DNA from: Pseudacidovorax intermedius
Lineage (GTDB): Bacteria; Pseudomonadota; Gammaproteobacteria; Burkholderiales; Burkholderiaceae_C
Direction: 5' to 3'
DNA length: 64,000 nucleotides
Assembly: GCF_001476815.1 (NCBI RefSeq)
Contig: NZ_LDSL01000038.1
Location: forward strand, 1-64,000
Shown piece by piece: positions 31,987 through 58,089 of this stretch; positions within the stretch are counted from its first letter, which is position 1; every line of letters starts with the position of its first letter. The notes beneath the pieces are model-generated. The model saw nothing but the letters and a program-made list of their open reading frames with translations, did not search any database and was not told the origin of the DNA. The position numbers and the translations under genes were made by a program.

Positions 31987-32014
31987 TTGATAAACCGACG
32001 CGTCGGGTTATAAA
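31987..32014 (+). promoter_or_regulatory. Promoter with TetR-type operator ahead of quinone reductase
   Basis: -35 TTGATA (31987-31992) and -10 TATAAA (32009-32014) are spaced by 16 bp. TAAACCG-ACGCGT-CGGGTTA (31991-32010) fills the spacer. It matches the locus consensus TA-N2-CCG-N6-CGG-N2-TA with changed N2 positions. A bound repressor would block RNA polymerase. Confidence 0.65.
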
Positions 32015-32112
32015 CAAGGGAGTCGTGCGATTCGCAGCCCGACGCCGCAGCGTGCCGCGCGGCGCGTCGCCGCCCCCTGTTCCCACGCCGAATCCCATTC
32101 AGGAGCCCTTCC

Positions 32113-32883
32113 GTGAACGTGCTGATCGTCCATGCCCATCCCGAGCCGCGCTCCTTCAACCGTGCATTGCTGGACACGGCCGTGCGCACGCTGGGCGAGC
32201 AGGGCCATCAGGTGGTGGTGTCCGACCTGTATGCCATGGGCTTCAACCCGGTGGCGGGCCCCGATGACTTCAGCGAGCGCCGCTTTCCCGATGCCCTGCA
32301 GTACGACCGCGAGCAGAAGCAGGCGTCGCAGCGCGGAAGCTTCGTGCCCGACATCCAGCAGGAGATCGACAAGCTGCTCGCCTGCGACCTGCTGATCCTG
32401 CAGTTCCCGCTGTGGTGGTTCTCGGTGCCCGCCATCCTCAAGGGCTGGATCGACCGGGTCTTCGTCAACGGGCTGGTCTATGGCGCGGGCGGCAAGCGCT
32501 TCGACCAAGGTGGGCTGCGCGGCCGGCGGGCCATGCTGTCCTTCACCACCGGCTGCTTCCCGGCCATGATGGACAGCGACGGCCTGCTGGGCGAGCGCGA
32601 CGTGATCCTGTGGCATCTGCAGCATGGCGTCTTCGGCTACAGCGGCCTGCAGGTGCTGCCGCCCTTCGTGGGCTGGGCCATCCAGTACAGCGACGAGGCA
32701 CAGCGAGCGGCCTATCTCGATGCCTATGCGCAGCGGCTGCGCGGCATCGAGGGCGACAGTCCCATGCCCGCACATCCACTCTCGGACTTCGGTCCCGACT
32801 GGCGGCTCAGGCCCGAGGTCGCATCGCGCACGGCCGGCCACCGCCGCGCCGCCGCCGCGCCCACGACGAGGCCGGACCTGTGA
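32113..32883 (+). CDS. NAD(P)H-quinone oxidoreductase, flavodoxin-like (NQO1/MdaB family)
   Basis: A 256-residue cytoplasmic flavoprotein reducing quinones by two electrons. It begins MNVLIVHAHPEPRSFNRAL (FMN/FAD phosphate loop). The family hallmark FPLWWFSVPAILKGWIDRVF lies at about residues 97-116. A Pro/Ala-rich tail extends beyond the fold. Start is GTG 32113 with AGGAG at 32101-32105. It is the first gene behind a TetR-type operator and overlaps the thioesterase gene by GTGA. A quinoid or aromatic intermediate, or redox stress from the oxygenase, would explain its presence. Confidence 0.9.
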   Translation: MNVLIVHAHPEPRSFNRALLDTAVRTLGEQGHQVVVSDLYAMGFNPVAGPDDFSERRFPDALQYDREQKQASQRGSFVPDIQQEIDKLLACDLLILQFPLWWFSVPAILKGWIDRVFVNGLVYGAGGKRFDQGGLRGRRAMLSFTTGCFPAMMDSDGLLGERDVILWHLQHGVFGYSGLQVLPPFVGWAIQYSDEAQRAAYLDAYAQRLRGIEGDSPMPAHPLSDFGPDWRLRPEVASRTAGHRRAAAAPTTRPDL

Positions 32884-33758
32884 GCGCCACTGTCCTCGTT
32901 CCCGATCTGGCCGACCGACTGCAGCTGCGCGCCGCCGGACCCGGCCGCTGGCGCAACCTTCATGGCGACGCCAACCAGAACGGCCGCGCCTATGGCGGCC
33001 AGCTGCTCGGCCAGGCCATGCGCGCCCTGCTGCTGGACATGCCGGCCGGCCGCGCGCCCACGATGATGCAGTTCCTCTTCCTGCAGGGTGCCATGCCCGA
33101 GCAGCCCATCGTCTTCGAGGTGACGCGGCTGCAGGAAGGCAAGCGCTTCAGCGCCCGCCATGTGCGCGGCACGCAGGGCGAACGCACAGTGCTCGATGCC
33201 CACGCGACCTGCGCCGCCGCCATGGAAGGGCCCTCGCACCGGCTGGGCAGTGCCGCGCCGCCTGGCGAGCAGCCGGCGATCCTGCCCACGCTCGACGACA
33301 TCCCCGCTGCCACGCGCGAGGCCCTGGCCCGCATGGGCGGCTACGGCCGAGGCTGCGATGCCGCGATCGATTTCCGCATTCCAGAGATGGAGCGCCAGCT
33401 CGATCCGCGGCGCGCCGGCCCGCAACTGCGCTACTGGCTCAAGGCGCCGCAGCCGCTGGGCGACGATCCGGCGGTGCAGATCGCCGCCTTCGCCTATCTG
33501 TCGGACTGGTGGCTCAACGCCTGCATGCTGTTGCCGCACCTGGGGGAGGCGGGCGAGCGGGCCATGTACATCTCAAGCCTCAACCATGCGCTGTGGCTGC
33601 ACGCCCCGCTGCGGGCCGACGACTGGCTGCATGTGCAGACCGCCTGCGTGCATTCGGCCGGCGGCCGGGGCCTGGCGGTGGCGCAGTACCACGATGCCGA
33701 CGGCCGGCATGTGGCCAGCGCCACGCAGGACTGCCTGATGGCCTTCGCGGGGCGTTGA
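32880..33758 (+). CDS. tesB: Acyl-CoA thioesterase II (TesB family)
   Basis: A 292-residue double-hotdog thioesterase that hydrolyses acyl-CoA to free acid and CoA. It has the family opening FHGD/LHGDANQNGRAYGGQLLGQAM, a YISSLNHALWLHAPLRADDWL stretch and a SATQDCLMAF end. It could recycle CoA from dead-end thioesters formed in the pathway. Start is GTG 32880 overlapping the previous stop. It is the last gene of a two-gene unit and converges with the ferredoxin gene. Confidence 0.9.
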   Translation: MSATVLVPDLADRLQLRAAGPGRWRNLHGDANQNGRAYGGQLLGQAMRALLLDMPAGRAPTMMQFLFLQGAMPEQPIVFEVTRLQEGKRFSARHVRGTQGERTVLDAHATCAAAMEGPSHRLGSAAPPGEQPAILPTLDDIPAATREALARMGGYGRGCDAAIDFRIPEMERQLDPRRAGPQLRYWLKAPQPLGDDPAVQIAAFAYLSDWWLNACMLLPHLGEAGERAMYISSLNHALWLHAPLRADDWLHVQTACVHSAGGRGLAVAQYHDADGRHVASATQDCLMAFAGR

Positions 33759-33767
33759 GCCGGCCTT

Positions 33768-34088
33768 TCAGACCTGCTCGTCGGGCAGTTGCACCCGCAG
33801 GCCCTCCAGCTCGGCCTGCATGCGGATCTGGCAGCACAGCCGGCTGGTCTCGCGCAGATCGGGCACACCCTCCAGCATGAAGGTCTCGGTCTCGGTGCGC
33901 GCGGGCAGCAGGGGCAGGAAGGCCGGGTCCACGTAGCCATGGCAGGTGGCGCAGCTGCAGGCCCCGCCGCAGTCGCCCAGGATGCCCGGCACGCCGTGGT
34001 CCACGGCCACCTGCATCAGGCTGCGGCCCACCGGCGCCTCGACGGCATGTTCGGCACCTTGGGGGTCGATGAATACAACGGTGGGCAT
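33768..34088 (-). CDS. [2Fe-2S] ferredoxin, putidaredoxin/adrenodoxin type
   Basis: A 106-residue electron carrier. Cluster ligands fit C40-x5-C46-x2-C49 and C86 in RLCCQIRM, the vertebrate/putidaredoxin pattern. C44 and C85 are extra cysteines beside the cluster. It would carry electrons from the ferredoxin reductase at 56743 to the Rieske oxygenase. It is transcribed divergently from the oxygenase gene across a 125-bp region containing a TetR-type operator, so both are probably controlled together. Confidence 0.92.
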   Translation of the reverse strand: MPTVVFIDPQGAEHAVEAPVGRSLMQVAVDHGVPGILGDCGGACSCATCHGYVDPAFLPLLPARTETETFMLEGVPDLRETSRLCCQIRMQAELEGLRVQLPDEQV

Positions 34089-34125: not shown

Positions 34126-34155
34126 TTGACATAGTCCGTCTCGTCGGACTATTAT
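34126..34155 (+). promoter_or_regulatory. Promoter with TetR-type operator ahead of Rieske oxygenase
   Basis: -35 TTGACA (34126-34131) and -10 TATTAT (34150-34155) are 18 bp apart. TAGTCCG-TCTCGT-CGGACTA (34132-34151), a perfect 7-bp inverted repeat, occupies the spacer. This is the best copy of the operator in the window, in the divergent region with the ferredoxin gene. Confidence 0.75.
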
Positions 34156-34213: not shown

Positions 34214-35515
34214 ATGGACCCTTGCGCCCACGTGATCCCCATTGCTCCCGTCGCCTCTGCCGCCGCTGCGGCAGCGCCGCGCTGGGACCAGCTCGTGCAC
34301 GACGGCCGCGTGCACGGCTCGCTCTACACCGATCCGGCCGTCTACGAGGCCGAGCTGGAGAAGATCTGGTTCCGCACCTGGGTCTACGTCGGCCACGAGA
34401 GCGAGATCCCCAACGCCAACGACTACGTCATGAAGTCCATCGGCCCCGAACCCGTGCTCATGACGCGCGACCGCACGGGCCGGATCCACCTGCTGCACAA
34501 CCGCTGCCCGCACCGGGGCAACCGCGTGTGCATGACGGAGCAGGGCAACGCGCGCTCCTTTACCTGCCCCTATCACGGCTGGACCTTCGCCAACGACGGC
34601 GCACTCAAAGGCTGGCCCTTTCCCTCGGGCTACGAGGGTGTGGACCGCAAGGACCATGGCCTGGGCAAGGTGGCCCGCGTCGCCAGCTACCGCGGCTTCG
34701 TCTTCGGCTCCATGGCGGCCGAAGGCCCCAGCCTCGAAGAGCATCTGGGTGCGGCCATGAAGTCCATCGACGCGCTGTGCGAGACCTCGCCCGAGGGCGA
34801 GGTGCAGGTGACCGCCGGCTTCCTCAAGCACAAGGTCAAGGCCAACTGGAAGTTCCTGGTCGAGAACGAGACCGACGGCTATCACCCCTCCTTCGTGCAT
34901 GCCTCGATCTTCGAAGTGGCGCAAAGCGGCATCGGCTCGCTCTACAGCGCCGAGTCGACCGCGGTCTCGCGCGACTTCGGCAACGGCCACACCGAGAACG
35001 ATCTGCGGCCCGAGTTCCGCAAGCGCGACGAGCCCATGTCCTGGTTCGGCACCACGGCCGACCGGCTGCCCGACTACACCGCGCGCATGAACGCGGCCTA
35101 TGGCGAGCAGAAGGCGCGCCGCATCATGATCGACGGCACGCCCCACATCATGATCTTCCCGAACCTGTTCATCGCGGAGATCCAGATCTTCGTGCTGCAG
35201 CCGCTGTCGGTGAACGAGACCGTGCAGCACGTGACCGCACTGCAGTTCAAGGGCGCACCCGACCTCAACCGCCGCATGCGCCAGCAGACCATGGGCTCGG
35301 TGGGGCCCGCGGGATTCCTGCTGGCCGACGATGCCGAGATGTACGAGCGCACGCAGATGGGCGTGCAGATGCGCAATCCCGAATGGCTGTTCCTCGGCCG
35401 CGGCATGCACCGCGAGCGCCGCGACGAGGACGGCTTCCTGATCGGCGACAACACCGACGAGGTGCCCAGCCGCGGCATCTGGCGCCATTACCGGCAGATG
35501 ATGGAGGCCGCGTGA
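34214..35515 (+). CDS. Rieske oxygenase, large (alpha) subunit, benzoate-dioxygenase-like
   Basis: A 433-residue terminal oxygenase subunit. The Rieske cluster ligands are C98-P-H100 and C118-x2-H121 (RCPHRGN and CPYHGW). The mononuclear iron site is D221-x2-H224-x4-H229 in NETDGYHPSFVHA. The region VARVASYRGFVFGS and the length resemble benzoate/toluate/anthranilate dioxygenases, so a ring or side-chain hydroxylation of an acid is plausible. The substrate cannot be fixed. The ribosome-binding site is CGGAGGA, about 9 bp before ATG. The beta-subunit gene overlaps its stop. No ring-cleavage dioxygenase is present in the window. Confidence 0.92.
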   Translation: MDPCAHVIPIAPVASAAAAAAPRWDQLVHDGRVHGSLYTDPAVYEAELEKIWFRTWVYVGHESEIPNANDYVMKSIGPEPVLMTRDRTGRIHLLHNRCPHRGNRVCMTEQGNARSFTCPYHGWTFANDGALKGWPFPSGYEGVDRKDHGLGKVARVASYRGFVFGSMAAEGPSLEEHLGAAMKSIDALCETSPEGEVQVTAGFLKHKVKANWKFLVENETDGYHPSFVHASIFEVAQSGIGSLYSAESTAVSRDFGNGHTENDLRPEFRKRDEPMSWFGTTADRLPDYTARMNAAYGEQKARRIMIDGTPHIMIFPNLFIAEIQIFVLQPLSVNETVQHVTALQFKGAPDLNRRMRQQTMGSVGPAGFLLADDAEMYERTQMGVQMRNPEWLFLGRGMHRERRDEDGFLIGDNTDEVPSRGIWRHYRQMMEAA

Positions 35516-36006
35516 TGCCGATGAGCCCCGAAGCGCGCGCCGCGCTGGAAGACGTCACGCAGTTCATCTACCGCGAGGCCCGTCTGCAGGACGAGCACCG
35601 CTACGACGACTGGGAAGCGCTGTGGACCGACGACGGCGTGTACTGGGTGCCCGCCAACGGCGACGGCGGTGACCCGGAGCAGGTCATGTCGATCATCTAC
35701 GACAACCGCTCGCGCATCGCACTGCGCATTCGCCAGTACCACACCGGCAAGCGCTTCAGCCAGACGCCGCAGTCGCGCCTGCGCCGGCTGGTGTCGAACA
35801 TCGAGGTGGAGCAGGACGATGGCCAGGAGCTGTCGGTGGGCTGCAACATGCTCATCTTCGAGAACCAGACCCGCGGCGACGTGCTCTGGGCCGCGCGCAC
35901 CGAGTACCGGCTGCGCCGCGTGGACGGCACGCTGCGCATGGTGCGCAAGAAGGTGAATCTGGTGAACAACCAGGACGCCCTCTATTCCATGGCCTTTCTC
36001 GTCTGA
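35515..36006 (+). CDS. Rieske oxygenase, small (beta) subunit
   Basis: A 163-residue structural subunit of the NTF2-like fold, with the typical TQFIYREARLQDEHRYDDWEALWTDDGVYWVP opening and RRVDGTLRMVRKKVNLVNN end. It assembles with the alpha subunit into an alpha3beta3 oxygenase in the known family. ATG 35515 overlaps the alpha stop; GTG 35512 and ATG 35521 are alternatives. A repeat-rich 171-bp gap follows. Confidence 0.92.
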   Translation: MPMSPEARAALEDVTQFIYREARLQDEHRYDDWEALWTDDGVYWVPANGDGGDPEQVMSIIYDNRSRIALRIRQYHTGKRFSQTPQSRLRRLVSNIEVEQDDGQELSVGCNMLIFENQTRGDVLWAARTEYRLRRVDGTLRMVRKKVNLVNNQDALYSMAFLV

Positions 36007-36177: not shown

Positions 36178-37008
36178 ATGAACACCCCGACTCAACCCGG
36201 CCCCGAGCGGCTGGTGGCCGATGGACCGGTGCTGCTGAGCCTGCATGCGGATGGCGTGGCCCATCTGCACCTGAACCGGCCCGACGCAGCGAACGGCCTC
36301 AACGTGGAGCTGCTGCGCGCGTTGCACGATGCGGTGCTTCGCATCCACGGCGACGGCCGCGTGCGCGCCGTGCTGCTGACCGGCGAAGGCAGGCACTTCT
36401 GCGCGGGCGGCGACGTCCACACCTTCCTTTCCAAGGGCGAGGCGCTGCCGGACTACATCCGCGTGGCGACCGCGCTGCTGCAGCTGGCCACGGCTGCGCT
36501 GATCCGGCTCAACCCGCCGGTCGTCGCCGCTGTGCATGGCTTCGCGGCGGGTGGGGGCGGCATGGGCCTGGTCTGTGCCAGCGACTTCGTGCTCGCGGCT
36601 GAGTCGGCCAGGTTCCTGGCCGGTGCCACCCGCGTGGCCATGGTGCCCGATGCCGGCGTGTCGGTGACGCTCACGCAGCTGGTGGGCTTCCGGCGTGCGA
36701 TGGAGATCCTCATGCTCAACCCGACGCTCACGGCGGCCGAGGCGAAGGAGATCGGCCTGGTCACGCGCGTGGTGCCCGATGCCGAACTGCAGGACGCCGC
36801 CTGGGCCCTGGCCCGCGAGCTGGCGGCCGGCGCGCCGGCCGCGCTGGCCAACACCAAGCGCCTGCTGTGGAACGGCATCGGCCAGGGCGTGGAAGCGGCC
36901 ATGCCTGAAGAGAACCATGCGCAGGCCTTCCTCTCGGGCATGGCCGATGCGCGAGAAGGCCTGGCGGCGGTGATCGAGAAGCGCGCGCCGCGCTTCACGG
37001 GGCGCTGA
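36178..37008 (+). CDS. Enoyl-CoA hydratase/isomerase family protein
   Basis: A 276-residue crotonase-fold protein, first gene of the 36-48.8 kb CoA operon. The oxyanion motif is FCAGGDVHTF. The first hydratase Glu is absent (GGGGMGLV), and Asp occurs in MVPDAG as in PaaG-type isomerases. Start ATG 36178 has GGAG 6-8 bp upstream; ATG 36157 (MADTETR) is an in-frame alternative. No obvious promoter or operator was found in the 171-bp gap before it, so read-through from the oxygenase genes is possible. Confidence 0.86.
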   Translation: MNTPTQPGPERLVADGPVLLSLHADGVAHLHLNRPDAANGLNVELLRALHDAVLRIHGDGRVRAVLLTGEGRHFCAGGDVHTFLSKGEALPDYIRVATALLQLATAALIRLNPPVVAAVHGFAAGGGGMGLVCASDFVLAAESARFLAGATRVAMVPDAGVSVTLTQLVGFRRAMEILMLNPTLTAAEAKEIGLVTRVVPDAELQDAAWALARELAAGAPAALANTKRLLWNGIGQGVEAAMPEENHAQAFLSGMADAREGLAAVIEKRAPRFTGR

Positions 37009-37749
37009 ATGCCCGGCGCAACCACGACGCGGCGACGCGCTCTGGTGACCGGCGGTGCCCGCGGCATCGGCGCGGCCATCGTCCGGCGTCTGGCGGCGGA
37101 CGGTCTGGAGGTCTGGTGCGCCGACCTCGATGCCGAGGCAGCCCGGGCCCTGGCCGAAGAAGCAGGGGCCACGGCCTGCGTCCTCGACGTCTGCGACTTC
37201 GACCGCGTGCATGCCGCGCTGGCCGACATCGGCCCGCTCGACGTGCTGGTCAACAACGCGGGTGTGGACCAGCATGCCTTCTTCACGCAGACCCTGCCCG
37301 CGGACTGGCGCCGGCTGCTGGCCGTGAACCTGGAGGCCGTGCTCAACACCACCCACGCCGTGCTGCCGGGAATGCAGGCCCGCGGCCATGGCCGCATCGT
37401 CAACGTCGCTTCCGAGGCGGGCCGACTGGGCTCGCGTGGCGGCTCGGTCTATGCGGCGGCCAAGGGCGGCGTGATCGCCTTCACCCGCTCCATCGCCCGC
37501 GAGAACGGCCGCAAGGGCATCACCGCCAACGTGGTGGCCCCCGGCCCCATCGACACGCCGCTGCTGCGGCAGGCGGTCGCGTCAGGTGGCGAGCGCTTGA
37601 TGGACGCGATGACGCAGGCCACGCTGCTGGGCCGGCTCGGCAGCGCCGACGAGGTGGCGGCGGCCGTGGCCTTCCTTGCGTCGGAGCAGGCCAGCTATGT
37701 GACCGGCGAGGTGCTGGGCGTCTCGGGCGGCATGGGGTGCGGGGCATGA
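37009..37749 (+). CDS. Short-chain dehydrogenase/reductase
   Basis: A 246-residue classical SDR. The cofactor loop is TGGARGIG (14-21), an Asp ends the second strand (CADLDAE, favouring NAD), NNAG lies at 82-85, and the catalytic residues are S135, Y148 and K152. It could oxidise a cis-dihydrodiol made by the Rieske oxygenase, or a 3-hydroxyacyl-CoA. It starts immediately after the previous stop and overlaps the next gene by ATGA. Confidence 0.9.
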   Translation: MPGATTTRRRALVTGGARGIGAAIVRRLAADGLEVWCADLDAEAARALAEEAGATACVLDVCDFDRVHAALADIGPLDVLVNNAGVDQHAFFTQTLPADWRRLLAVNLEAVLNTTHAVLPGMQARGHGRIVNVASEAGRLGSRGGSVYAAAKGGVIAFTRSIARENGRKGITANVVAPGPIDTPLLRQAVASGGERLMDAMTQATLLGRLGSADEVAAAVAFLASEQASYVTGEVLGVSGGMGCGA

Positions 37750-38696
37750 ACGGCGATCCGTCAACGACCGCCGACGACGGCGCCGTCGAGGCCGTCATCG
37801 CCAAGGTCCGCGCCGTCTACGGCCGCTGGCGCCGCGACACGCCCGTGGCGCAGATGCGCGCCGACTGGGACCAGCTCTTCGGCGCCACCGGCGACGCGCG
37901 CTTCACGCCCGTGCAGGCCGACGGCGTGCCCTGCGCCTGGATCGCCGCGCCGGGGGTGCGCGAGGACCGCGTCATCGTCTACTTACACGGCGGCGGCTTC
38001 CAGGTCGGCTCGCTGCAGTCGCATCGCGAGCTGATGGGCCGGCTCTCCGCCGCGGCGGGCGTGCGCGTACTGGGCGTGGACTACCGGCTGGCGCCGGAGC
38101 ACCGCCATCCCGCGCCGCTGGAGGACGCCCTCACCGTGATTCGCTGGCTGGGCCAGCAGGGCCTGCCGCTGTCGCACATCGCATTGGCCGGCGACTCCGC
38201 GGGCGGCGGGCTGGCGCTGGCCACGGTGCTGGCTCTGCAAGGTCTGGGCGACGAGCGCCCGGCCGCCGCCTTCCTGATGTCCGCCTGGACCGACCTGGCC
38301 GCCACCGGCGAGAGCTACGAGACGCGCAAACAGGCGGACCCCATCCACCAGCGGCCCATGATCCAGGCCATGGCCCGCAACTTCCTGGGCCCGCAGGCCG
38401 ATGCGCGCGACCCGCTGGCCTCGCCCCTGTATGCCGATGCGGCCGCGCTGGGCCGGTTGCCTCCACTGCTACTGCAGGTTGGCGACCGGGAGACGGTGCT
38501 GAGCGACTCCGTCGAGTTCGCGCAGCGCGTCAATGCCGCCGGCGGCCGGGCCGTCTGCCAAGCCTGGCCGGAGATGGTCCATGTGTTCCAGCAATTCCCG
38601 AACGAGCTGCCCCAGGCGCGCGCTGCGCTGGCGGAGGGCGGCCTCTTCCTTGCCGCCCACCTGGGTGGCCCTTCCACCGGAGACATCGCCCCATGA
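37746..38696 (+). CDS. Alpha/beta-hydrolase, hormone-sensitive-lipase family
   Basis: A 316-residue esterase or lactonase of bacterial HSL family IV. The oxyanion motif is HGGG (81-84), the nucleophile S161 in GDSAGG, and the acid and base lie in QVGDRETVLSDS and MVHVF near the C-terminus. There is no signal peptide, so it acts on an intracellular ester, lactone or possibly a thioester intermediate. It is coupled to both neighbours by four-base overlaps. Confidence 0.9.
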   Translation: MNGDPSTTADDGAVEAVIAKVRAVYGRWRRDTPVAQMRADWDQLFGATGDARFTPVQADGVPCAWIAAPGVREDRVIVYLHGGGFQVGSLQSHRELMGRLSAAAGVRVLGVDYRLAPEHRHPAPLEDALTVIRWLGQQGLPLSHIALAGDSAGGGLALATVLALQGLGDERPAAAFLMSAWTDLAATGESYETRKQADPIHQRPMIQAMARNFLGPQADARDPLASPLYADAAALGRLPPLLLQVGDRETVLSDSVEFAQRVNAAGGRAVCQAWPEMVHVFQQFPNELPQARAALAEGGLFLAAHLGGPSTGDIAP

Positions 38697-50007: not shown

Positions 50008-50011
50008 AGGC

Positions 50012-50503: not shown

Positions 50504-50504
50504 G

Positions 50505-51812
50505 ATGCTGGCCGTCACCCTGGGCTTCCTCGTTGCCTTCGCACTGATCTTCATGCAGGTGCCGATCGCCACGGCACTGGGCCTGGTCGGCTTCGGCGGC
50601 GTGGTGCTGCTCAACGGCTGGACGCCCGCGCTCAGCATGGCGGCCACGATCACGCGCGACAGCACCCTGGTCTACACGCTGATCGTCCTGCCCCTGTTCG
50701 TGCTGATGGGCAACCTGGTGGCGGGCGCCGGCATCTCGGGCGACTTGTTCCGCGCCGCCCAGGCGCTGATCGGGCGCCGGCGAGGCGGCGTGGCCATGGC
50801 GACGGTGGCGGCCTGCGGCGCCTTCGGCGCCATCTGCGGCTCCAGCGTGGCCACCGCCGCGACCATGGGCAAGGTCGCGATCCCGGAGATGCGCCGCCTC
50901 GGCTATGGCGACCGGCTGGCCAGCGCCGCGGTGGCAGCCGGCGGCACGCTGGGCATCCTCATTCCGCCTTCCGTGATCATGGTGGTCTACGGCGTCGCCA
51001 CGCAGACGCACATCGGCAAGCTGTTCGCCGCCGGCATCGTGCCGGGCCTCATCGCGGTCATCGGCTACATGCTCGCCGTGCGCTGGACGGTATGGCGGGA
51101 TCCCTCGCAGGCGCCCGTGGACGCCGAGCGCGTCCGCATGGACGGGGGGGCGCTGCTGCGCACGCTGTGGCCGGTCGCGGCCATCTTCGGCATCGTGATG
51201 GGCGGCATCTACGGCGGCTTCTTCACCTCCGTCGAAGCCTCGGGCATCGGCGCCGCGGCCGCGCTGGTGTTTGCACTGACCCGACACAACCTGAGCCTGG
51301 CGCAGATCGGCGAGATCTTCGCGGACAGCGCACGCACCTCGGCCATGATGTTCGCCATCATCCTGGGCGCGGCCCTGTTCGGCGAGTTCGTCAACATCAC
51401 CGGCGTGCACCAGGGGCTGCTGGCGATGGTGCAGGGCAGTGGGCTGTCGCCCTTCGGCATCATCCTGGCGATGATCGCCGTCTACCTCGTCCTGGGTTGC
51501 GTGCTCGAGAGCCTGTCGATGATCCTGCTGACGGTGCCGATCTTCTTTCCCATCGTGACGGCGCTGGGCTTCGATCCCGTGTGGTTCGGCATCCTCATCG
51601 TCGTGGTGGTGGAGATCGGGCTCATCACGCCGCCCATCGGCGTCAACCTCTTCGTCATCCGCTCCGTGACGCCGGACATGCCGATGGGCGCGATCGTGCG
51701 CGGCGTGGTGCCTTTCATCGTGGCCGACCTGACGCGGGTGCTGCTGATCGCCGGCGTGCCTGCCCTCAGCCTGTGGCTGCCCAACCTGCTGTTCAAGAGC
51801 GCTGCCGGATGA
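50505..51812 (+). CDS. dctM: TRAP transporter large permease (DctM family)
   Basis: A 435-residue inner-membrane protein with about twelve hydrophobic segments, carrying out sodium-driven uptake in the known family. Signatures are FVLMGNLVAGAGISGDLFRAAQ, GSSVATAATMGKVAIPEM and LITPPIGVNLFVI. Its stop overlaps the ATG of the kinase gene of triad copy 3, so transport and kinase are translationally coupled. Confidence 0.94.
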   Translation: MLAVTLGFLVAFALIFMQVPIATALGLVGFGGVVLLNGWTPALSMAATITRDSTLVYTLIVLPLFVLMGNLVAGAGISGDLFRAAQALIGRRRGGVAMATVAACGAFGAICGSSVATAATMGKVAIPEMRRLGYGDRLASAAVAAGGTLGILIPPSVIMVVYGVATQTHIGKLFAAGIVPGLIAVIGYMLAVRWTVWRDPSQAPVDAERVRMDGGALLRTLWPVAAIFGIVMGGIYGGFFTSVEASGIGAAAALVFALTRHNLSLAQIGEIFADSARTSAMMFAIILGAALFGEFVNITGVHQGLLAMVQGSGLSPFGIILAMIAVYLVLGCVLESLSMILLTVPIFFPIVTALGFDPVWFGILIVVVVEIGLITPPIGVNLFVIRSVTPDMPMGAIVRGVVPFIVADLTRVLLIAGVPALSLWLPNLLFKSAAG

Positions 51813-52867
51813 CGCAGCCGGCCCTCGACCTCTCGGCGCCGGTGCTGGTGCCCCGGCTGGCCGGCTTCCTGTCCGCGGCCTGGGCCCGGCCGGTGGCCAT
51901 CGACGCGCTGCATCGCTTTGCGGCCGGCATGTCGTGGATCACGCTGGGCTTCAGCGCCATGCTGCCGGCCCACGGGGACGCGCCGGGCGAGACGCGCGCG
52001 CTGATCCTGCGCGTGGGCGATCCGGCCGGGCTGCTTGCGCCCTATCGCGCCGAGCCCGAATACCACGTGCTCGCCGCGCTGGAGAGCCTGCCGGCGCTGC
52101 CGGTGCCGCGCGTCTTCGCCTTCAGCGACGATCCGGCCGTGATCGGCGCACCCTTCCTGGTGACCGGCCGGGTGGAGGGCGACACGCCCATGCCCTGGAA
52201 GGGCGCTGCGGAGGCCCGCGGCGAGGCCCTCAACGCCAGCCTGGCCGCCGACTTCGTCGATGGCCTGGCCGCGCTGCACCGGGTGGACTGGCGCGCCACC
52301 CCGCTGGCGCGGCTGTGGGGCGCGGTGGACGCCACCGAGGTCGCCCGCGCGCAGGTGGACTTCTGGTGGACGCATGCCGGCCTGGCCGGCCACGACACGG
52401 CCCCGCCGCCGCAGATGCACCATGCCCTGCGCTGGCTGCAGCGCCATGCGCCCGTTGCGCCGCGCGTGGTCATCGTCCATGGCGACTACCGCGTGGGCAA
52501 CTTCCTGCAGCAGGCCGGGCGCATCACGGCGGTGCTGGATTGGGAGCTGGTGCATGCCGGCGATCCGCACGAAGACCTGGCCTGGGCGGCCCTGCGCATC
52601 TTCTCGGGCGGCACCGGCCGCGTGGGCGGCCTGATGACGCGCGACGCCTTCCTGGACCGCTACGCCGCCCAGGCCGGCTTCCAGCCCGATCCGCGCGTGC
52701 TGCGCTACTACGAGGTGCTGGGCCTGTTCAAGAGCGCGTCGATGCTGATGGGTGCGGCCCAGCGCGTGCAGGGCGGCCAGGCGCGCGACGTGCGCATGGC
52801 GTCGATGGGCTTCCAGGTGGCCTCCACGCTGCTCGAACTCAACCGCCTGCTGGGAGAGGCGCCATGA
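51809..52867 (+). CDS. APH-fold phosphotransferase, triad copy 3 (LvaA/ACAD10-like)
   Basis: A 352-residue kinase-fold protein close to copy 1 (shared FAAGMSWIT, HGDYRVGNFLQ, WELVHAGDPHEDLAW). The catalytic loop is H224-G-D226 with N231, and the metal Asp D244 is intact. The candidate ATP lysine position is Arg (LILRVGDP). ATG 51809 overlaps the DctM stop; the stop overlaps the next ATG. As in the other copies, a hydroxyacyl-CoA kinase role is inferred from the ACAD10/LvaA relationship and the CoA-pathway context. Confidence 0.8.
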   Translation: MTQPALDLSAPVLVPRLAGFLSAAWARPVAIDALHRFAAGMSWITLGFSAMLPAHGDAPGETRALILRVGDPAGLLAPYRAEPEYHVLAALESLPALPVPRVFAFSDDPAVIGAPFLVTGRVEGDTPMPWKGAAEARGEALNASLAADFVDGLAALHRVDWRATPLARLWGAVDATEVARAQVDFWWTHAGLAGHDTAPPPQMHHALRWLQRHAPVAPRVVIVHGDYRVGNFLQQAGRITAVLDWELVHAGDPHEDLAWAALRIFSGGTGRVGGLMTRDAFLDRYAAQAGFQPDPRVLRYYEVLGLFKSASMLMGAAQRVQGGQARDVRMASMGFQVASTLLELNRLLGEAP

Positions 52868-53337
52868 ACGACGACCTGCCGCGCCTGATCGAGGCCCTGC
52901 GCCGTGCGCTCGAGCAGTCGGTGGCGCCCGAGCTGCAGAGCGACTTCGCCCGCGGCCAGCTGGCGGCGGTGCACGACATCCTCGGCAAGCTGGCCGGCAT
53001 GGCGGTGTGGGACCCGGCCGCGCGCAGTGCGCAGGCCGAGGCCCTGCGTGCGGGCCTTGGCCGTTTCGAGGCCTATGCCGCGCAGGCCGGGCAGCGGCTG
53101 CCCGCCGCGGCCGGCAGCCCTGATGCCGACGAACTGGCCGCCGCCGAGGCACGCGTGCGCCAGTGCGTGGACTGGCTGGATGCCAGCGCCGAGGACCTCG
53201 GCCCCGCACGCCATGCCGAACTCGACGCCATCGTGCGCCAAGCCCTGCGCGAACAGCTCCTGGTGGAGCGCAGGCGCATTCCCCTGACCGACTTCGGCGC
53301 CATGACGGCCGGAGCCGCAACCGCTCCCAAGGACTGA
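52864..53337 (+). CDS. DUF6285-like helical protein, triad copy 3 (LvaB-like)
   Basis: A 157-residue, predicted all-helical protein (LPRLIEALRRALEQSVAPELQSDFARGQLAAVHDILGKLAGMAVWDP...). Its AxWDP element is shared with copy 1 (VAWDPAP), which supports homology despite low overall identity. There is no catalytic motif or signal peptide. It overlaps the kinase gene by ATGA and is followed three bases later by the lipocalin-like gene. Confidence 0.6.
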   Translation: MNDDLPRLIEALRRALEQSVAPELQSDFARGQLAAVHDILGKLAGMAVWDPAARSAQAEALRAGLGRFEAYAAQAGQRLPAAAGSPDADELAAAEARVRQCVDWLDASAEDLGPARHAELDAIVRQALREQLLVERRRIPLTDFGAMTAGAATAPKD

Positions 53338-53340
53338 CCC

Positions 53341-54456
53341 ATGCTCACTTCGCAGGACGACCTGCCAGGCCACCAGACGCCGGCCCCCTTCGCCCAGGCG
53401 GGCCAGGGCGATCCCCGCTTCACCGAACGCTGGTGGTACACGGCCCATCCGCTGGACGGACGGCCGCTGATCCTGGACGTGGGCTTCGGCTACTACCCCA
53501 ACCGCGGCGTCATGGATGCGTTTGCCGGCGTGACGGTCGGGCGCACGCAGCACAACTTCCGTGCCTCGCGCCAACTCGGCGACCGTCCGCTGGACCTGGA
53601 GGTCGGGCCGCTGCGGCTGCAGATCGTCGAAGGCCATCGGCTGCATCGGCTCACGCTCCGCGACAACGCCTCGGGCATCGCCTTCGAACTGGACTTCGAG
53701 GCCTGCTTTCCCGCCGCCCAGGAGAAGCAGAGCCGGCGCGAGCGCGACGGCGTGGTCGACGAAGACCTGGCGCGCGTCGCCCAGTTCGGCCGCTGGCAGG
53801 GCTGGCTGCAGGTGGCCGGCGAGCGGCATGCAGTGAGCGCTTCCGACTGGTGGGGCCAGCGTGACCGGTCCTGGGGTGTCCGGTCCGAGATGCGTACCGA
53901 CTGGGCCGTGCCGCCCATGCAGACGCACAAGCAGTTCTTCTGGACCTGGTCGATGTTTCAGACGCCCTCGGTCGGCGTCTCGCTGTTCCTCAAGGAGCGC
54001 GAGGCGGACAGGCCCTATTACCTGTCGGGCGCCGAGTTCCAACGCGACGCCCACGGGCGGGTGCGCAAGCGCGAGGTGCGCGAGCTGGCGCATGCGCTGG
54101 AGTGGGCCGACGACCCGCTCGGCCAGACGCTGACGGCCGGCGAGTTCATCCTGCGCTTCGACGAGGGCCCGGCGCGCGTGCTGCGCGTGGAGGCGCTGCC
54201 GGCGCGGTACTACCTCAAGGGGGGCCTCTACGGCGGCTGGGGCGGCTGGAACCACGGCGACGACCGCGGCGCCTATGCCGAGGCCCACGACCGCTGGAAT
54301 CTGGACGACCCGCTCACGCGCGAGCGTGCCCGCACCCTCGGCGACCACGTCATGCGTGTGCACACAGAGGGCGAACAGGGCATCGGGATCAGCGAATACG
54401 GCGTGGCCACTGGCTACGGCCGCTATCCGCTGCCGCAGAAGCATCCGGCGCTGTAG
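53341..54456 (+). CDS. Lipocalin-like (CrtC/AttH-type, DUF7064/7065-like) protein, triad copy 3
   Basis: A 371-residue homologue of the 14709 product throughout. Shared landmarks are DDLPGHQTPAPF/DDFFGHQTAAPL at the start, FTERWWYT, WGQRDRSWGVR, YYLKGGLYGGWGGWNHGDDRG and a YGVATGYGRY end. There is no signal peptide. Because it is always next to the kinase pair, it may bind or modify the same hydrophobic substrate. Activity is unknown. Confidence 0.65.
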   Translation: MLTSQDDLPGHQTPAPFAQAGQGDPRFTERWWYTAHPLDGRPLILDVGFGYYPNRGVMDAFAGVTVGRTQHNFRASRQLGDRPLDLEVGPLRLQIVEGHRLHRLTLRDNASGIAFELDFEACFPAAQEKQSRRERDGVVDEDLARVAQFGRWQGWLQVAGERHAVSASDWWGQRDRSWGVRSEMRTDWAVPPMQTHKQFFWTWSMFQTPSVGVSLFLKEREADRPYYLSGAEFQRDAHGRVRKREVRELAHALEWADDPLGQTLTAGEFILRFDEGPARVLRVEALPARYYLKGGLYGGWGGWNHGDDRGAYAEAHDRWNLDDPLTRERARTLGDHVMRVHTEGEQGIGISEYGVATGYGRYPLPQKHPAL

Positions 54457-54476
54457 CTGCGCCAGGGAAACCCGCC

Positions 54477-56030
54477 ATGCAACTCACGCAGGCACTGACC
54501 CGCGCGGTGCAGATCCGCCACCGCCACACGGCCACGCTCTACAACGACCGCTCGCGCACCTGGGCCGAAGTGGGCGAACGCGTGCCGCGGCTTGCGGCCG
54601 GGCTTCGCGCGATGGGGCTGAAGGCCGGGGAGCGCCTGGCCGTGCTGGCCCTCAACAGCGACAACTACATCGAGCTCCTGTTCGCCGCCGCCTGGGCCGA
54701 CCTGGTGCTGGTGCCGCTCAACACCCGCTGGGCGGTGCCCGAGAACATCTACAGCCTGCGGGACGCGGAATGCGCGGGCCTGGTGCTGGACGACGCCTTC
54801 GCGGAGCAGGCGCCGGCCCTGCTGGACGGCCACGCCATGGCGCATGTGGTGCATATGGGCGATGCGCCCACGCCCGCCGGCATGACCGGCTCCGAAGCCC
54901 TGATCGCGCGCTCGGCGCCCATGCCCGACGCCTGCGGCCGCGACGATGCGCTGTGCGGCATCTACTACACGGGCGGCACCACCGGCAGCCCCAAGGGCGT
55001 GATGCTGTCGCATCGCAACTTCGTCGCCGCCTCCATCAACTGGATCGCCACGCTGCACTTCACCGACCAGACCCGCTACCTGCATTCGGCCGGGCTGTTC
55101 CACCTGGCCGGCGCGTCGCCGGCCTTCGCCCTCACCATGGCCGGTGGCACGCATGTGTGCCTGCCCAAGTTCGATGCCCTGCTGGCCTTCCAGGCCATCG
55201 AGCGCCACCGGGTCAACTACGTGCTGTTCGTGCCGACCATGATCAACATGATGCTGAACCACCCGGACTTCGAGCGCCACGACCTCAGCAGCGTGCGCTA
55301 CTGCGAATATGGCGCCTCGCCCATTCCCGACGCGGTGCTGGCCGCCGCCATCGAGAAGCTGCCGGGCTGGGAGTTCATCCAGGGCTATGGCATGACCGAG
55401 ACGGCCGCGTTGACGGTGAGCCTGCCCTGGCGCTTTCACTTCGACGGGGAGCACGGCCCTCACAAGCGTAAGGCAGCGGGCCGCGCGTCGTATGGTGTCG
55501 ATGTGCGCATCGTGGATGCCGAGGGTCAGGAAGTGCCGCGCGGCATGCCGGGCGAGATCGCGGTGCGCGGCGCACAGGTCATGCTGGGCTACTGGAAGCG
55601 TCCCGAGGACACGGCGGCCGTGCTGCGCGACGGCTGGATGCACACCGGGGACGGCGCCTGGATGGACGAGGCCGGCTTCATCTACATCGTCGATCGCGTC
55701 AAGGACATGATCATCAGCGGGGGCGAGAACATCTACTCGCGCGAGGTGGAGAACGCCGTGCATGCGCACCCGGCCGTGCGCGAATGCGCGGTGATCGGCA
55801 TCCCCGACGAGAAGTGGGGCGAGGCGGTGCTGGCCGTGGTGGCGCTCAAGGCCGGCCATGCCGTGACCGAGCAGGAACTGATCGCGCACTGCCGCATGCT
55901 GATCGCCAGCTACAAATGCCCGCGTCGCGTGGCGTTCTGCGAGGCGCTGCCGCTTTCCGGTGCCGGAAAGATCATGAAGAACGTGCTGCGCGCGCCCTAC
56001 TGGGAGGGAAAGAAGCGCGCGGTCAACTGA
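54477..56030 (+). CDS. AMP-forming acyl-CoA ligase, medium-chain/aryl type
   Basis: A 517-residue acyl-CoA synthetase. The P-loop-like motif is YYTGGTTGSPKGVMLSH; other motifs are GYGMTETAALTV, DRVKDMIISGGENIYSREVE, and the catalytic Lys in PLSGAGKIMKNVLR. It is about 100 residues shorter than the two ABC-module ligases and of a different subfamily (fatty/aromatic acid ligases). As last gene of the TRAP operon it probably activates the acid brought in by that transporter. Its 3' end overlaps the convergent TetR gene by 8 bp. Confidence 0.92.
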   Translation: MQLTQALTRAVQIRHRHTATLYNDRSRTWAEVGERVPRLAAGLRAMGLKAGERLAVLALNSDNYIELLFAAAWADLVLVPLNTRWAVPENIYSLRDAECAGLVLDDAFAEQAPALLDGHAMAHVVHMGDAPTPAGMTGSEALIARSAPMPDACGRDDALCGIYYTGGTTGSPKGVMLSHRNFVAASINWIATLHFTDQTRYLHSAGLFHLAGASPAFALTMAGGTHVCLPKFDALLAFQAIERHRVNYVLFVPTMINMMLNHPDFERHDLSSVRYCEYGASPIPDAVLAAAIEKLPGWEFIQGYGMTETAALTVSLPWRFHFDGEHGPHKRKAAGRASYGVDVRIVDAEGQEVPRGMPGEIAVRGAQVMLGYWKRPEDTAAVLRDGWMHTGDGAWMDEAGFIYIVDRVKDMIISGGENIYSREVENAVHAHPAVRECAVIGIPDEKWGEAVLAVVALKAGHAVTEQELIAHCRMLIASYKCPRRVAFCEALPLSGAGKIMKNVLRAPYWEGKKRAVN

Positions 56031-56640
56031 GCGGCCGGCCTTCGGCATCGAGTTGAACGAAGCCCGCCGTCCACAGCGCCGAGACGCGGGCGGCCAGCTC
56101 GCGCGGCGGGATCTGGCCGCTCTTGCGATACCAGGTGAAGGTCCAGATCATCATGCCGAAGAGCAGCAGCGAATAGGGCTTGCGCGCCTTGGGGTCGCGC
56201 ATGACGGTGGGGTTCATCTCGCCGAGCAGCTGTTCCAGCAGGTCGGCCAGCTCCACTTCCATGACGCGAATCTGCTCGCGCTCGGCGCGCGGCAGGAACT
56301 TGAGGTCGGCCATCAGGATGAGGTGCTCGCTGCGCGAGCGGGCCGCGCCCTGCACGAAGCTGTCGATGAAGCGCGCGAAGCGTTCCTCTGCCGGCAGCGG
56401 CAGGGCCACGATGGCCCGCAACTCGGCCGTCTGCTGCGCGATGTGCTCATGCACGACGGCGAAGAGCAGGTCCTCCTTGCTGGGGAAGTAGTGGTAGAGG
56501 TGGGACTTGGAGGCATTGCAGGCCTTCGCCACATCCATCATCGTGGCCTGGTCGAAGCCCTTGCGCGCGATCAGGGCCGCCGCCTTCTCCAGGATGGCGC
56601 GCTTCTTGTCCTCGTAGTCGTCTGCACGGGTGCGTGTCAC
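56023..56640 (-). CDS. TetR-family transcriptional repressor
   Basis: A 205-residue one-component regulator. The N-terminal HTH (about 12-60) reads RAILEKAAALIARKGFDQATMMDVA...SKSHLYHYFPSKEDLL, and a helical ligand-binding domain follows. The start is GTG 56640. The divergent region to the ferredoxin-reductase gene holds TAGACCG-N6-CGGACTA, the same palindrome that covers other promoters of the cluster. Autorepression and control of the oxygenase, TRAP, quinone-reductase and ABC-2 promoters is the natural reading, with a CoA ester or the substrate as inducer. This link is inferred from motif sharing, not shown. Confidence 0.9.
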   Translation of the reverse strand: MTRTRADDYEDKKRAILEKAAALIARKGFDQATMMDVAKACNASKSHLYHYFPSKEDLLFAVVHEHIAQQTAELRAIVALPLPAEERFARFIDSFVQGAARSRSEHLILMADLKFLPRAEREQIRVMEVELADLLEQLLGEMNPTVMRDPKARKPYSLLLFGMMIWTFTWYRKSGQIPPRELAARVSALWTAGFVQLDAEGRPLS

Positions 56641-56692: not shown

Positions 56693-56716
56693 TAGACCGA
56701 CCGGACGGACTATAAG
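56693..56716. promoter_or_regulatory. TetR-type operator in the tetR/ferredoxin-reductase divergent region
   Basis: TAGACCG-ACCGGA-CGGACTA (56693-56712) is an inverted repeat with one mismatch between arms. It overlaps a rightward -10 TATAAG (56711-56716), and TAATAT-like sequence lies on the leftward side. It probably represses both genes. Confidence 0.7.
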
Positions 56717-56742
56717 GCGCCCGCTTCGAGGCGGCACACAGG

Positions 56743-58005
56743 ATGAACATGGAGACAGTACAGCAAGCGCACTGGGACCTGATCGTGATCGGTGCCGGCC
56801 ATGCCGGCAGCGAGCTGGCCGTGACCACGCGCCAGGCGGGCTGGGCGGGCAGCATCCTGCTGCTCGGTGACGAGCCGGGACTGCCCTACCACCGGCCACC
56901 GCTTTCCAAGGCGTACCTCAGTGGCGAGATGGACGCCGGCGCCCTGGCGCTGCGCCCCGAGGCCGCCTACGAACGCGCAGGCGTGGTGCGCCGCAGCGGC
57001 GTGCGCGTCGCTGCCATAGACCGGGTCCGGCACGAACTGGTGCTGGCCGGCAGCGGCGAACGGCTGCGCTACGGCAAGCTGGCCCTGTGCACCGGTGGCC
57101 GGCCACGGCCGTACCGCTGCGAGGGGATCGATCCGGACGCTCCGCCGTCCAACCTGCTGTACCTGCGTACCGCTGCCGACGCAGACCGGCTTCGCGCCTT
57201 CGTCAAGCCCGGCGCACGGATTGCGGTGCTGGGCGGCGGCTATGTGGGCCTGGAAGTGGCGGCCTCGGCCGCCAAGGCCGGCATGCAGGTGACGGTGCTC
57301 GAAGCGCAGCCGCGCGTGCTGGCGCGCGTGGCCGGTCCTCGGCTGTCGCAGTTCTACGAGGACGAGCATCGACGCCACGGGGTGGACATCCGCACGGGCA
57401 TGCAGGTGCTGGCGGTGCAGTGCGTGGACGGCGTCATCACCGCGCTCGATGGCACGAACGGCGAGCGCATCGAGGCCGACGTGGTCGTGGCCGGCATCGG
57501 CATGGAGCCCGAGGTGAGCCTGGCCATCGAGGCCGGCCTGGGCGGCGTCGATGGCATTCCGGTGGACACGCACGGCCAGACGGCTGACCCGGACGTGTTC
57601 GCCGCAGGCGACTGCACGCGGCACGTGCATCCGGCCTACGAGCGGGATGTGCGCATCGAGTCGGTGCCCAACGCGCTGGAGCAGGCCCGCGCGGTCGCCG
57701 GCTGGCTGGGCGGCAAGCCCAAGCCGTACACGGCGATTCCGTGGTTCTGGTCCGACCAGTACGACCTCAAGCTGCAGATGGCCGGCCTCCCGCAGGGGCA
57801 TGACCAGTGCGTGCTGCGCGGCGATCCCGCAACACGCAGCTTTTGCGCGTTCTACCTGAAGGGCGGCCAGCTGCTGGCGATCGACGCTGTGAACCGGCCC
57901 GGCGACTTCATGCTCGTGCGCCGCGCCATGGCCCAGCCGCTGCATGTGGATGCGGCCCGCCTCGCCGACGAGTCGCAACCCCTGAAGGCGCTGCTGCAGG
58001 CTTGA
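56743..58005 (+). CDS. Ferredoxin reductase, FAD/NAD-dependent (rubredoxin/putidaredoxin-reductase type)
   Basis: A 420-residue flavoprotein that takes electrons from NAD(P)H and reduces a [2Fe-2S] ferredoxin. Its motifs are the FAD loop VIGAGHAGSELA near residue 15, PYHRPPLSKAYLSG, the NAD loop VLGGGYVGLEVA near 165 and DVFAAGDCTRHVHP near 285. The C-terminal reductase domain has WFWSDQYDLKLQMAG. It is the only ferredoxin reductase in the window and so probably serves the ferredoxin at 33768 and the Rieske oxygenase 22 kb away, under the same operator type. Confidence 0.92.
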   Translation: MNMETVQQAHWDLIVIGAGHAGSELAVTTRQAGWAGSILLLGDEPGLPYHRPPLSKAYLSGEMDAGALALRPEAAYERAGVVRRSGVRVAAIDRVRHELVLAGSGERLRYGKLALCTGGRPRPYRCEGIDPDAPPSNLLYLRTAADADRLRAFVKPGARIAVLGGGYVGLEVAASAAKAGMQVTVLEAQPRVLARVAGPRLSQFYEDEHRRHGVDIRTGMQVLAVQCVDGVITALDGTNGERIEADVVVAGIGMEPEVSLAIEAGLGGVDGIPVDTHGQTADPDVFAAGDCTRHVHPAYERDVRIESVPNALEQARAVAGWLGGKPKPYTAIPWFWSDQYDLKLQMAGLPQGHDQCVLRGDPATRSFCAFYLKGGQLLAIDAVNRPGDFMLVRRAMAQPLHVDAARLADESQPLKALLQA

Positions 58006-58061
58006 CTTAGGTGTAAGCCCCAAGTGGTGCAGCAGGCCCCCATGCGCAAAATCGCGCCCAA

Positions 58062-58089
58062 TTGATAGTCCGACGAGTCGGTCTAATTA
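58062..58089 (+). promoter_or_regulatory. Promoter with TetR-type operator ahead of uptake module 2
   Basis: -35 TTGATA (58062-58067) and -10 TAATTA (58084-58089) are 16 bp apart. TAGTCCG-ACGAGT-CGGTCTA (58066-58085) covers the spacer. The layout is the same as at 31987. The predicted transcript would start around 58096, after the first ATG of the open frame. Confidence 0.72.

What the first reader, a model, noticed from the sequence alone, without database searches (positions are those of the whole stretch)
31987..58089. A TetR-type operator family (TANNCCG-N6-CGGNNTA) covers five promoters across 26 kb
The same 20-bp inverted repeat occurs at 31991 (quinone reductase/TesB), 34132 (Rieske oxygenase and divergent ferredoxin), 48888 (TRAP operon), 56693 (tetR/ferredoxin reductase) and 58066 (ABC module 2). 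In the clearest cases it lies between -35 and -10 hexamers, for example TTGACA-18-TATTAT at 34126-34155. One site is in the TetR gene's own divergent region. The oxygenase, its scattered electron-transfer partners, two transporters and a ligase thus appear to form one repressor regulon. The pathway limits can be drawn from the operator alone.
Basis: partly seen in the sequence, partly recalled or inferred. Interest (0 to 1): 0.85.

Follow-up and report, generated by a model that had tools for sequence, protein, structure and literature searches.

The report
Shared TetR operator of catabolic operons
A short mirror-image DNA sequence sits in the promoters of most operons of a bacterial breakdown pathway and very probably lets one TetR-type repressor, or two sister ones, switch these operons on together; the kind of switch is already known.

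Summary
In detail: five exact copies of TANNCCG-N6-CGGNNTA lie at the stated places (0.01 expected), all upstream of genes. A sixth lies 1.6 kb past the window end. A profile built only from other genomes ranks five of the six first in the genome; 31991 is weak. Relatives carry the operator before the same operon heads (oxygenase 10/10, ABC-2 20/20, TRAP 11/11, acyl-CoA dehydrogenase 14/14), also where operons moved, and hardly ever before internal genes. Among 299 family genomes the strict operator and TetR1 occur in the same six. The regulon is well supported by footprinting; binding is untested. Two corrections. A paralogous TetR2 just outside the window sits at the sixth operator, with a slightly different recognition helix and a partly private box variant, so 'one repressor' is not established. 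And the operator does not mark the whole cluster: 6.4-31.6 kb holds one weak, unconserved site. The core resembles the proven PaaR box of Burkholderia cenocepacia; similar folds include acyl-CoA-sensing TetRs. New member of a known kind; substrate unknown.

The parts
31991..32010 (.). operator before quinone reductase (Flavodoxin_2)/TesB; weakest of the five
   Evidence: 12.8 bits, partial match; orthologous promoter has a site in 5 of 8
34132..34151 (.). operator between divergent ferredoxin and Rieske oxygenase genes, filling the 18-bp spacer and overlapping the -10
   Evidence: site in 10 of 10 oxygenase-alpha and 7 of 7 ferredoxin orthologues
34126..34131 (+). -35 hexamer TTGACA of the oxygenase operon
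   Evidence: TTGACA directly before the operator in 7 of 10 oxygenase-promoter sites
34150..34155 (+). -10 hexamer TATTAT; its first TA is the end of the operator
48888..48907 (.). operator before the TRAP/CoA-ligase operon
   Evidence: 11 of 11 DctP orthologues
56693..56712 (.). operator between tetR1 and ferredoxin reductase
   Evidence: within 127 bp before TetR1 in 23 of 27 loci
58066..58085 (.). operator before ABC module 2
   Evidence: 20 of 20 livG2 orthologues
6323..6342 (.). doubtful weak site before livH of ABC module 1
   Evidence: one mismatch; not in the profile scan at E<=10; absent in 5 of 5 other livH1 orthologues
56023..56640 (-). TetR1, 205 aa, GTG start; TetR_N + TetR_C_24
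32113..32883 (+). Flavodoxin_2 quinone/FMN reductase
32880..33758 (+). TesB-like acyl-CoA thioesterase
33768..34088 (-). [2Fe-2S] ferredoxin (Fer2)
34214..35515 (+). Rieske oxygenase alpha subunit
35515..36006 (+). Rieske oxygenase beta subunit
36178..48815 (+). rest of the presumed oxygenase operon: enoyl-CoA hydratases, SDR, hydrolase, HMG-CoA-synthase-like protein, SCPx-type thiolase, 3-hydroxyacyl-CoA dehydrogenase, FAD oxidoreductase, acyl-CoA dehydrogenase, CoA transferase
   Evidence: no site before these genes in orthologues except ECH2 1 of 8, in G137 where it stands first
48976..56030 (+). TRAP transporter (DctP, Q, M), APH-like kinase, two proteins without a Pfam hit, CoA ligase
56743..58005 (+). 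ferredoxin reductase (Pyr_redox_2 + Reductase_C)
58130..63554 (+). ABC module 2 (livG, livF, FadD-like ligase, livH, livM); the binding protein follows at contig 63592-64749, past the window end

Best explanation
The sites are operators of TetR1 (56023-56640), a PaaR-like TetR repressor that probably senses an acyl-CoA. Without substrate a TetR1 dimer sits on the palindrome TAGWCCGWC-NN-GWCGGWCTA in the spacer, -10 or start region and blocks RNA polymerase at the oxygenase, ferredoxin, ferredoxin-reductase, quinone-reductase/TesB, TRAP/ligase, ABC-2 and its own promoters. A CoA thioester made by one of the pathway's ligases releases it. The paralogue TetR2, just outside the window at a sixth operator, governs the acyl-CoA dehydrogenase operon there and may share sites with TetR1. 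Shown here: site positions, rarity in the genome, conservation at orthologous promoters, TetR1-operator co-occurrence, overlap with promoter-like hexamers. Inferred: binding, repression, the CoA-ester signal, the split of labour between TetR1 and TetR2.
For: Five sites against 0.01 expected; six contig sites among nine genome matches, five of them top of an independent profile scan. Strict operator in 6 of 299 family genomes and TetR1 (E<=1e-40) in the same 6 of 299; in the class sample 1 genome of 186 besides the own one has a match, a perfect palindrome with G or C at the W positions, context not examined. Operators precede the same operon heads in related genomes, also where operons are rearranged. 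Sites within 250 bp upstream: ACAD3 14/14, livG2 20/20, oxygenase alpha 10/10, Fdx 7/7, DctP 11/11, TetR2 14/15, FdR 23/27, TetR1 24/31 rows, NQO 5/8; internal genes 0 except ECH2 1/8 and a CoA ligase 1/20. Site within 127 bp before TetR1 in 23 of 27 loci. Macromonas (L075/G137, linked by equal contig length) has TetR1 and no TetR2 at E<=1e-50, yet keeps sites, some degenerate, at DctP, oxygenase, ligase and ECH2/ferredoxin promoters. Precedent: B. cenocepacia PaaR box ACCGACCGGTCGGT between -35 and -10, needed for repression (PMC2770484, section 8). Fold matches include PfmR, AibR with isovaleryl-CoA, KstR2, FadR.
Against: No binding or expression data. The 31991 site is weak and NQO orthologues have a site in only 5 of 8. 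Four of 27 TetR1 loci lack a site with at most one core mismatch close upstream (L063, L070, L074, L075); L063 and L075 keep degenerate ones. TetR2 is of the same subfamily, so assigning each site to TetR1 is not proven. The fold list also holds TetRs with other ligands (DarR with c-di-AMP, AmtR, PhlH), so the CoA-ester signal is a guess. The exact PaaR box is absent from the own genome and was found in only 2 of 120 genomes of the order sample, with no clear TetR relative beside it.
Confidence: 0.8

Rival explanations
1. Two paralogous repressors share one operator family: TetR1 and TetR2 (and a third paralogue in some genomes) bind overlapping sets of the sites, so the regulon integrates two CoA-ester signals.
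For: TetR2 (41% identical, TetR_C_24) lies at its own copy of the operator, contig 65561. TetR2 accompanies TetR1 in 5 of 6 carrier genomes. Recognition helices differ at S44 (T in 16 of 17 TetR2 rows) and H47: H in 27 of 29 TetR1 rows, M in 17 of 17 TetR2 rows. Sites at TetR2/ACAD3 carry a variant (TAAA at one end, C at position 13) in 9 of 15, against 1 of 83 other sites. One ACAD3 site equals the TetR1 consensus (L054).
Against: Macromonas keeps operators although no TetR2 was found. The box variant argues for partly separate specificities; its 9 carriers are related sequences, the 15 include one dubious second match in L076, and the TetR2 site of G105 lacks it. Cross-binding is not shown.
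Confidence: 0.35
2. The palindrome is the operator of a regulator encoded elsewhere, for example a LuxR-type LAL regulator of the cluster or a global factor, and TetR1 is a bystander.
For: The window has a LuxR-type regulator at 21363-24080 and another lies downstream on the contig.
Against: Operator and TetR1 occur in the same 6 of 299 genomes; the site sits directly before TetR1 in 23 of 27 loci; no site precedes the LuxR gene (0 of 2); the core resembles a proven TetR (PaaR) box.
Confidence: 0.04
3. Chance palindromes in a GC-rich genome.
For: Three further matches of the loose pattern lie elsewhere in the genome, as many as the reversed control gives, and one coding-sequence match scores above the 31991 site.
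Against: Shuffle expectation 0.01; the pattern at orthologous operon heads.
Confidence: 0.01

Closest known systems
PaaR of Burkholderia cenocepacia (TetR repressor of phenylacetate genes)
   Same: TetR type; inverted repeat ACCGACCGGTCGGT between -35 and -10, needed for repression, at several operons (PMC2770484, passages and section 8; gel shift and release by 'compound II', which I take to be phenylacetyl-CoA, in the review PMC9493321, passages). The six contig sites agree with it at 9-12 of 14 core bases; six of those bases are fixed by the search pattern.
   Different: Here the box is extended by TAG/CTA ends, the inner bases vary, the exact box is absent, and the targets are a Rieske oxygenase and beta-oxidation type pathway, not paa genes; no clear paa cluster was found in the genome (one borderline PaaA_PaaC hit).
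TetR beside the paa cluster of Novosphingobium pentaromativorans US6-1 plasmid pLA3
   Same: 37% identical to TetR1; upstream of paaA I read by eye TAGACCGTCCGGTCAATCAA, three mismatches from the consensus.
   Different: Phenylacetate genes; the strict core pattern has no match in this locus, and the right half lacks CGG.
PfmR/TTHB023 of Thermus thermophilus
   Same: Best PDB fold after 3ccy; an earlier reported box TACCGACCGNTNGGTN shares the CCGACCG core (PMC7022988, passages).
   Different: Fatty-acid genes; 22-23% identity; the later in-vitro consensus of the same paper is differently spaced.
AibR, KstR2, FadR (acyl-CoA-related TetRs)
   Same: Among the fold matches; AibR is solved with isovaleryl-CoA, with and without operator DNA, FadR with stearoyl-CoA.
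   Different: 18-24% identity; their operators were not compared here.
MbdR of Azoarcus sp. CIB
   Same: TetR repressor released by an aromatic CoA thioester, 3-methylbenzoyl-CoA (PMC4424350, passages).
   Different: Operator ATACN10GTAT; not among the best sequence matches of TetR1 shown.

Membership tests
TetR-family repressor | TetR_N helix-turn-helix domain and all-helical TetR fold | tested here: met
   TetR_N 63 bits, TetR_C_24 68 bits; AlphaFold2 model from 12 sequences, pLDDT 89, TetR hits in the PDB
TetR-family repressor | palindromic operator in its own promoter region | tested here: met
   56693-56712; site upstream of TetR1 in 23 of 27 loci
TetR-family repressor | binds the operator and represses | not testable with these tools
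   needs gel shift, footprinting or a mutant
PaaR (Burkholderia type) | box ACCGACCGGTCGGT in the core promoter | tested here: inconclusive
   similar core, 9-12 of 14 identical at six sites; exact box absent in the own genome
PaaR (Burkholderia type) | encoded with and controls phenylacetate (paa) genes | tested here: not met
   no paa epoxidase genes among the cluster proteins scanned; one borderline PaaA_PaaC hit in the genome, on another contig
PaaR (Burkholderia type) | phenylacetyl-CoA as effector | not testable with these tools
   ligand unknown
MbdR | operator ATACN10GTAT | tested here: not met
   the operator is TAGWCCGWCNNGWCGGWCTA (MbdR box from PMC4424350)
FadP / LiuQ regulons of Betaproteobacteria | their DNA motifs | not tested
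   the passages seen of PMC5343134 give no motif letters

The most novel reading that the evidence does not exclude
Two paralogous PaaR-like repressors, TetR1 and TetR2, kept together in Comamonadaceae, read one operator family whose promoter-specific deviations are shared across genera, and so gate a mobile pathway of about 37 genes by two different CoA-thioester intermediates, an early and a late one.
Probability: 0.3. Interest if true: 0.5.

Novelty: new member of a known kind. Interest (0 to 1): 0.42.

Why it matters
If true it groups about 37 genes (own count) of an accessory breakdown pathway (oxygenase, its ferredoxin and reductase, two transporters, ligases, thiolase-type enzymes) into one regulatory unit, found in many Comamonadaceae and on plasmids of two Variovorax strains. 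Operator plus TetR1 become a handle for finding the pathway and for learning its unknown substrate by screening CoA esters. It also ties the PaaR-type box to a wider branch of TetR regulators.

Tried and rejected
6323 was considered as a member: one mismatch, not in the profile scan, not conserved; left as doubtful. 34325 lies inside the oxygenase gene and was set aside. The three matches on other contigs (C234, C251, C281) do not appear in the profile scan at E<=10 and were set aside. The third TetR_C_24 gene of the genome over the cut-off (C113) is about 25% identical to TetR2 and was set aside; a fourth (C231) is under the cut-off. A search for the exact PaaR box in 120 genomes of the order gave 2 genomes, 3 sites; the 3-kb loci showed one short weak TetR-like stretch and were not followed. 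On the Variovorax sp. SRS16 plasmid (TetR1 60% identical) the oxygenase/ferredoxin site is perfect, but the site nearest to TetR1 has one mismatch and lies 212 bp upstream. Naming the pathway failed: phenylacetate-, ibuprofen- and steroid-like routes were considered from memory only; no NCBIfam model reached its cut-off for the oxygenase subunits; paper searches listed nothing that I recognised as this cluster. That I know of no description of this regulon rests on paper searches in open-licence papers only.

One search listed 108 sites; minus 10 of these loci 98; minus 5 without a recognised catabolic neighbour gives the 93 of the profile. All of these sites were picked by matching the motif, so the profile itself is no independent proof; one search is the less biased count (thresholds: at most one core and four consensus mismatches; orthologues at 40% identity or more; single-base shuffles as control).
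Full report
Observation. The loose pattern gives exactly the five sites named, against 0.01 expected in shuffled sequence. With one mismatch two more appear: 6323, 67 bp before the permease gene of ABC module 1, and 34325, inside the oxygenase gene as called. In the whole genome (5.55 Mb, 295 contigs) the pattern occurs nine times, six of them within 34 kb of this contig; the reversed pattern occurs three times. The sixth contig site is at 65561, 1.6 kb past the window end.

Genome-wide profile. A sequence profile was built from 31 sites of other genomes, none from the window's genome. Scanned over the own genome at E<=10 (150 of 7960 first-look candidates scored) it returned 15 rows, ten distinct places. 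Five contig sites rank first (58066, 34132, 56693, 65561, 48888; best-strand scores 15.8 to 19.5 bits). Next is a place on contig C242 (14.5 bits) that I read by eye as coding sequence of a short-chain dehydrogenase; then 31991 with 12.8 bits over 16 of 20 positions; then three weaker places. 6323 is not in this list.

Conservation. In 299 genomes of the family (own one included) the strict operator TAGNCCGNCNNGNCGGNCTA occurs in six (14 sites; all 14 lie in this cluster or its fragments) and TetR1 at E<=1e-40 occurs in the same six. By plain arithmetic two sets of six among 299 agree by chance about once in 1e12, but the operator lies inside the cluster that carries TetR1, so the two are not independent draws. 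Three genomes of the same genus in that sample have neither, so the cluster is accessory. In a class-wide sample of 187 genomes one besides the own has a match, a perfect palindrome with G or C at the W positions, whose context I did not examine. A scan of the genome collection gave 27 TetR1 loci, with record titles of Pseudacidovorax, Caenimonas, Comamonas badia, Hydrogenophaga, Variovorax (one on plasmid pVarWS11_2), Rhodoferax, Ramlibacter, Pseudorhodoferax, Macromonas and unnamed Burkholderiales. In 23 of 27 the operator lies within 127 bp before TetR1 with at most one core mismatch; L075 and L063 keep degenerate sites there, L074 one at 256 bp, L070 none that convinces.

Pattern over the genes. 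For every gene of the cluster I asked whether the 250 bp before its orthologues hold a site (starts from tblastn, identity at least 40%, four duplicate loci dropped). Operon heads: acyl-CoA dehydrogenase 3 14 of 14, livG2 20 of 20, oxygenase alpha 10 of 10, ferredoxin 7 of 7, DctP 11 of 11, TetR2 14 of 15, ferredoxin reductase 23 of 27, TetR1 24 of 31 (rows include paralogues), quinone reductase 5 of 8. Genes inside the operons are at 0, except ECH2 1 of 8 (G137, where it stands first) and the CoA ligase 1 of 20 (by this is L070). The adjoining part (ABC module 1, beta-oxidation genes, LuxR) is at 0 except livH1 1 of 6 (the window's own 6323) and livG1 1 of 5 (a 45%-identical paralogue in G272 beside a third TetR). 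Several of those genes had only one to three orthologues to test. Single-base shuffles of the upstream regions gave at most 0.05 hits per gene. None of the 108 sites lies inside a gene recognised there.

Promoters. At the oxygenase gene TTGACA and TATTAT flank the operator with 18 bp between; TTGACA stands directly before the operator in 7 of 10 oxygenase-promoter sites. In many other sites the closing TA of the operator begins a -10-like TATTAT or TATAAA, or the operator follows a TTGC-N17-TATA-like promoter (ferredoxin reductase, acyl-CoA dehydrogenase 3). Both placements fit repression by blocking RNA polymerase. These promoter readings are by eye.

Repressors. TetR1 has TetR_N and TetR_C_24 domains. 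A second TetR of the same type, TetR2, lies at contig 64814-65410, divergent from an acyl-CoA dehydrogenase operon, with the operator 65561 between them. The two are 41% identical and separate in a tree of 52 rows with middling support (89/70 for the TetR2 fork; 90/88 for TetR1 together with a third paralogue type; one very long outgroup branch). Their recognition helices differ at S44 and H47: His in 27 of 29 TetR1 rows, Met in 17 of 17 TetR2 rows. Sites at TetR2/ACAD3 carry a box variant in 9 of 15, against 1 of 83 elsewhere; the carriers are related, one of the 15 is a dubious second match, and the TetR2 site of G105 lacks the variant. So partly separate, overlapping specificities are likely, and cross-binding is open. 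In Macromonas no TetR2 is found at E<=1e-50, yet sites remain at DctP, oxygenase, ligase and ECH2/ferredoxin promoters, some of them degenerate, which favours TetR1 as sufficient.

What is known. The core WCCGWC-NN-GWCGGW resembles the PaaR box ACCGACCGGTCGGT of B. cenocepacia, shown by mutation to be needed for repression of paaA and lying between -35 and -10 (PMC2770484, passages and section 8); a review reports gel shift and release by its 'compound II', which I take to be phenylacetyl-CoA (PMC9493321, passages; PMC4424350, passages, names phenylacetyl-CoA as the signal of PaaR). The six contig sites agree with that box at 9 to 12 of 14 bases, six of them fixed by the pattern. The exact box is absent from the own genome and rare in the order sample, 2 of 120, without a clear TetR relative beside it. 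A TetR beside the paa cluster of Novosphingobium US6-1 is 37% identical to TetR1; the strict core has no match there, but a box with three mismatches stands before paaA, read by eye. A TetR of Variovorax sp. RA8, 34% identical, has TAGCCCGTCCGGACGGAATA before it, one of seven core-pattern matches in that 24.6-kb locus. Fold matches of the TetR1 model are led by 3ccy (function not known to me) and PfmR, then an uncharacterised TetR (3dcf) and AibR with isovaleryl-CoA; KstR2 and FadR follow, but so do TetRs with other ligands such as DarR (c-di-AMP) and AmtR. PfmR's earlier reported box shares the core (PMC7022988, passages). A CoA-thioester signal is the best guess. The window genome has no clear paa cluster, so TetR1 is PaaR-like, not PaaR.

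Pathway. About 37 genes lie behind the operators (own count; operon ends inferred from gene order): Rieske oxygenase with [2Fe-2S] ferredoxin and FAD reductase, HMG-CoA-synthase-like protein, SCPx-type thiolase, acyl-CoA dehydrogenases, CoA transferases, ligases, TRAP and ABC transporters. The substrate could not be named.

Verdict. The finding is real and well supported as a regulon; a single repressor and sharp pathway limits go beyond the evidence. The kind of system is known.

Noticed in passing
window 38693-40156: HMG-CoA-synthase-like protein of 487 aa (match to about residue 340) whose C-terminal part looks by eye like a DUF35/OB-fold domain, next to an SCPx-type thiolase: possibly a fused complex that makes or breaks carbon-carbon bonds.
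   Followed up: partly
L044; G272:C1:1271821-1273944: A third PaaR-like TetR type beside an ABC transporter with a related operator (TCGACCGACGCGACGGTTTA) in G272; similar paralogues in L065 and L068.
   Followed up: partly
L055:8561, L057:8566, L059:8569, L061:8548 and L055:17729, L057:18221, L059:18209, L061:17752: Operator deviations typical of one promoter (AAGACC... before livG2, TATACCGTCCCG... before DctP) recur, the first also in Caenimonas (L052) and G272, as if affinities were tuned; common descent was not ruled out.
   Followed up: no
L094 (Variovorax sp. SRS16 plasmid 3); L058 (Variovorax sp. WS11 plasmid pVarWS11_2): The cluster or parts of it lie on plasmids in two Variovorax strains, so it may be mobile.
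   Followed up: partly
L063:4220-4239: A TetR1 locus whose only near-operator (TGGACCGACCAGTCGGCCGA) lacks the TA ends; its TetR1 has Leu instead of His in the recognition helix. One case only.
   Followed up: partly
window 11922-20078: Four LIV-type binding proteins near ABC module 1 (11922, 15878, 17702, 18924).
   Followed up: no
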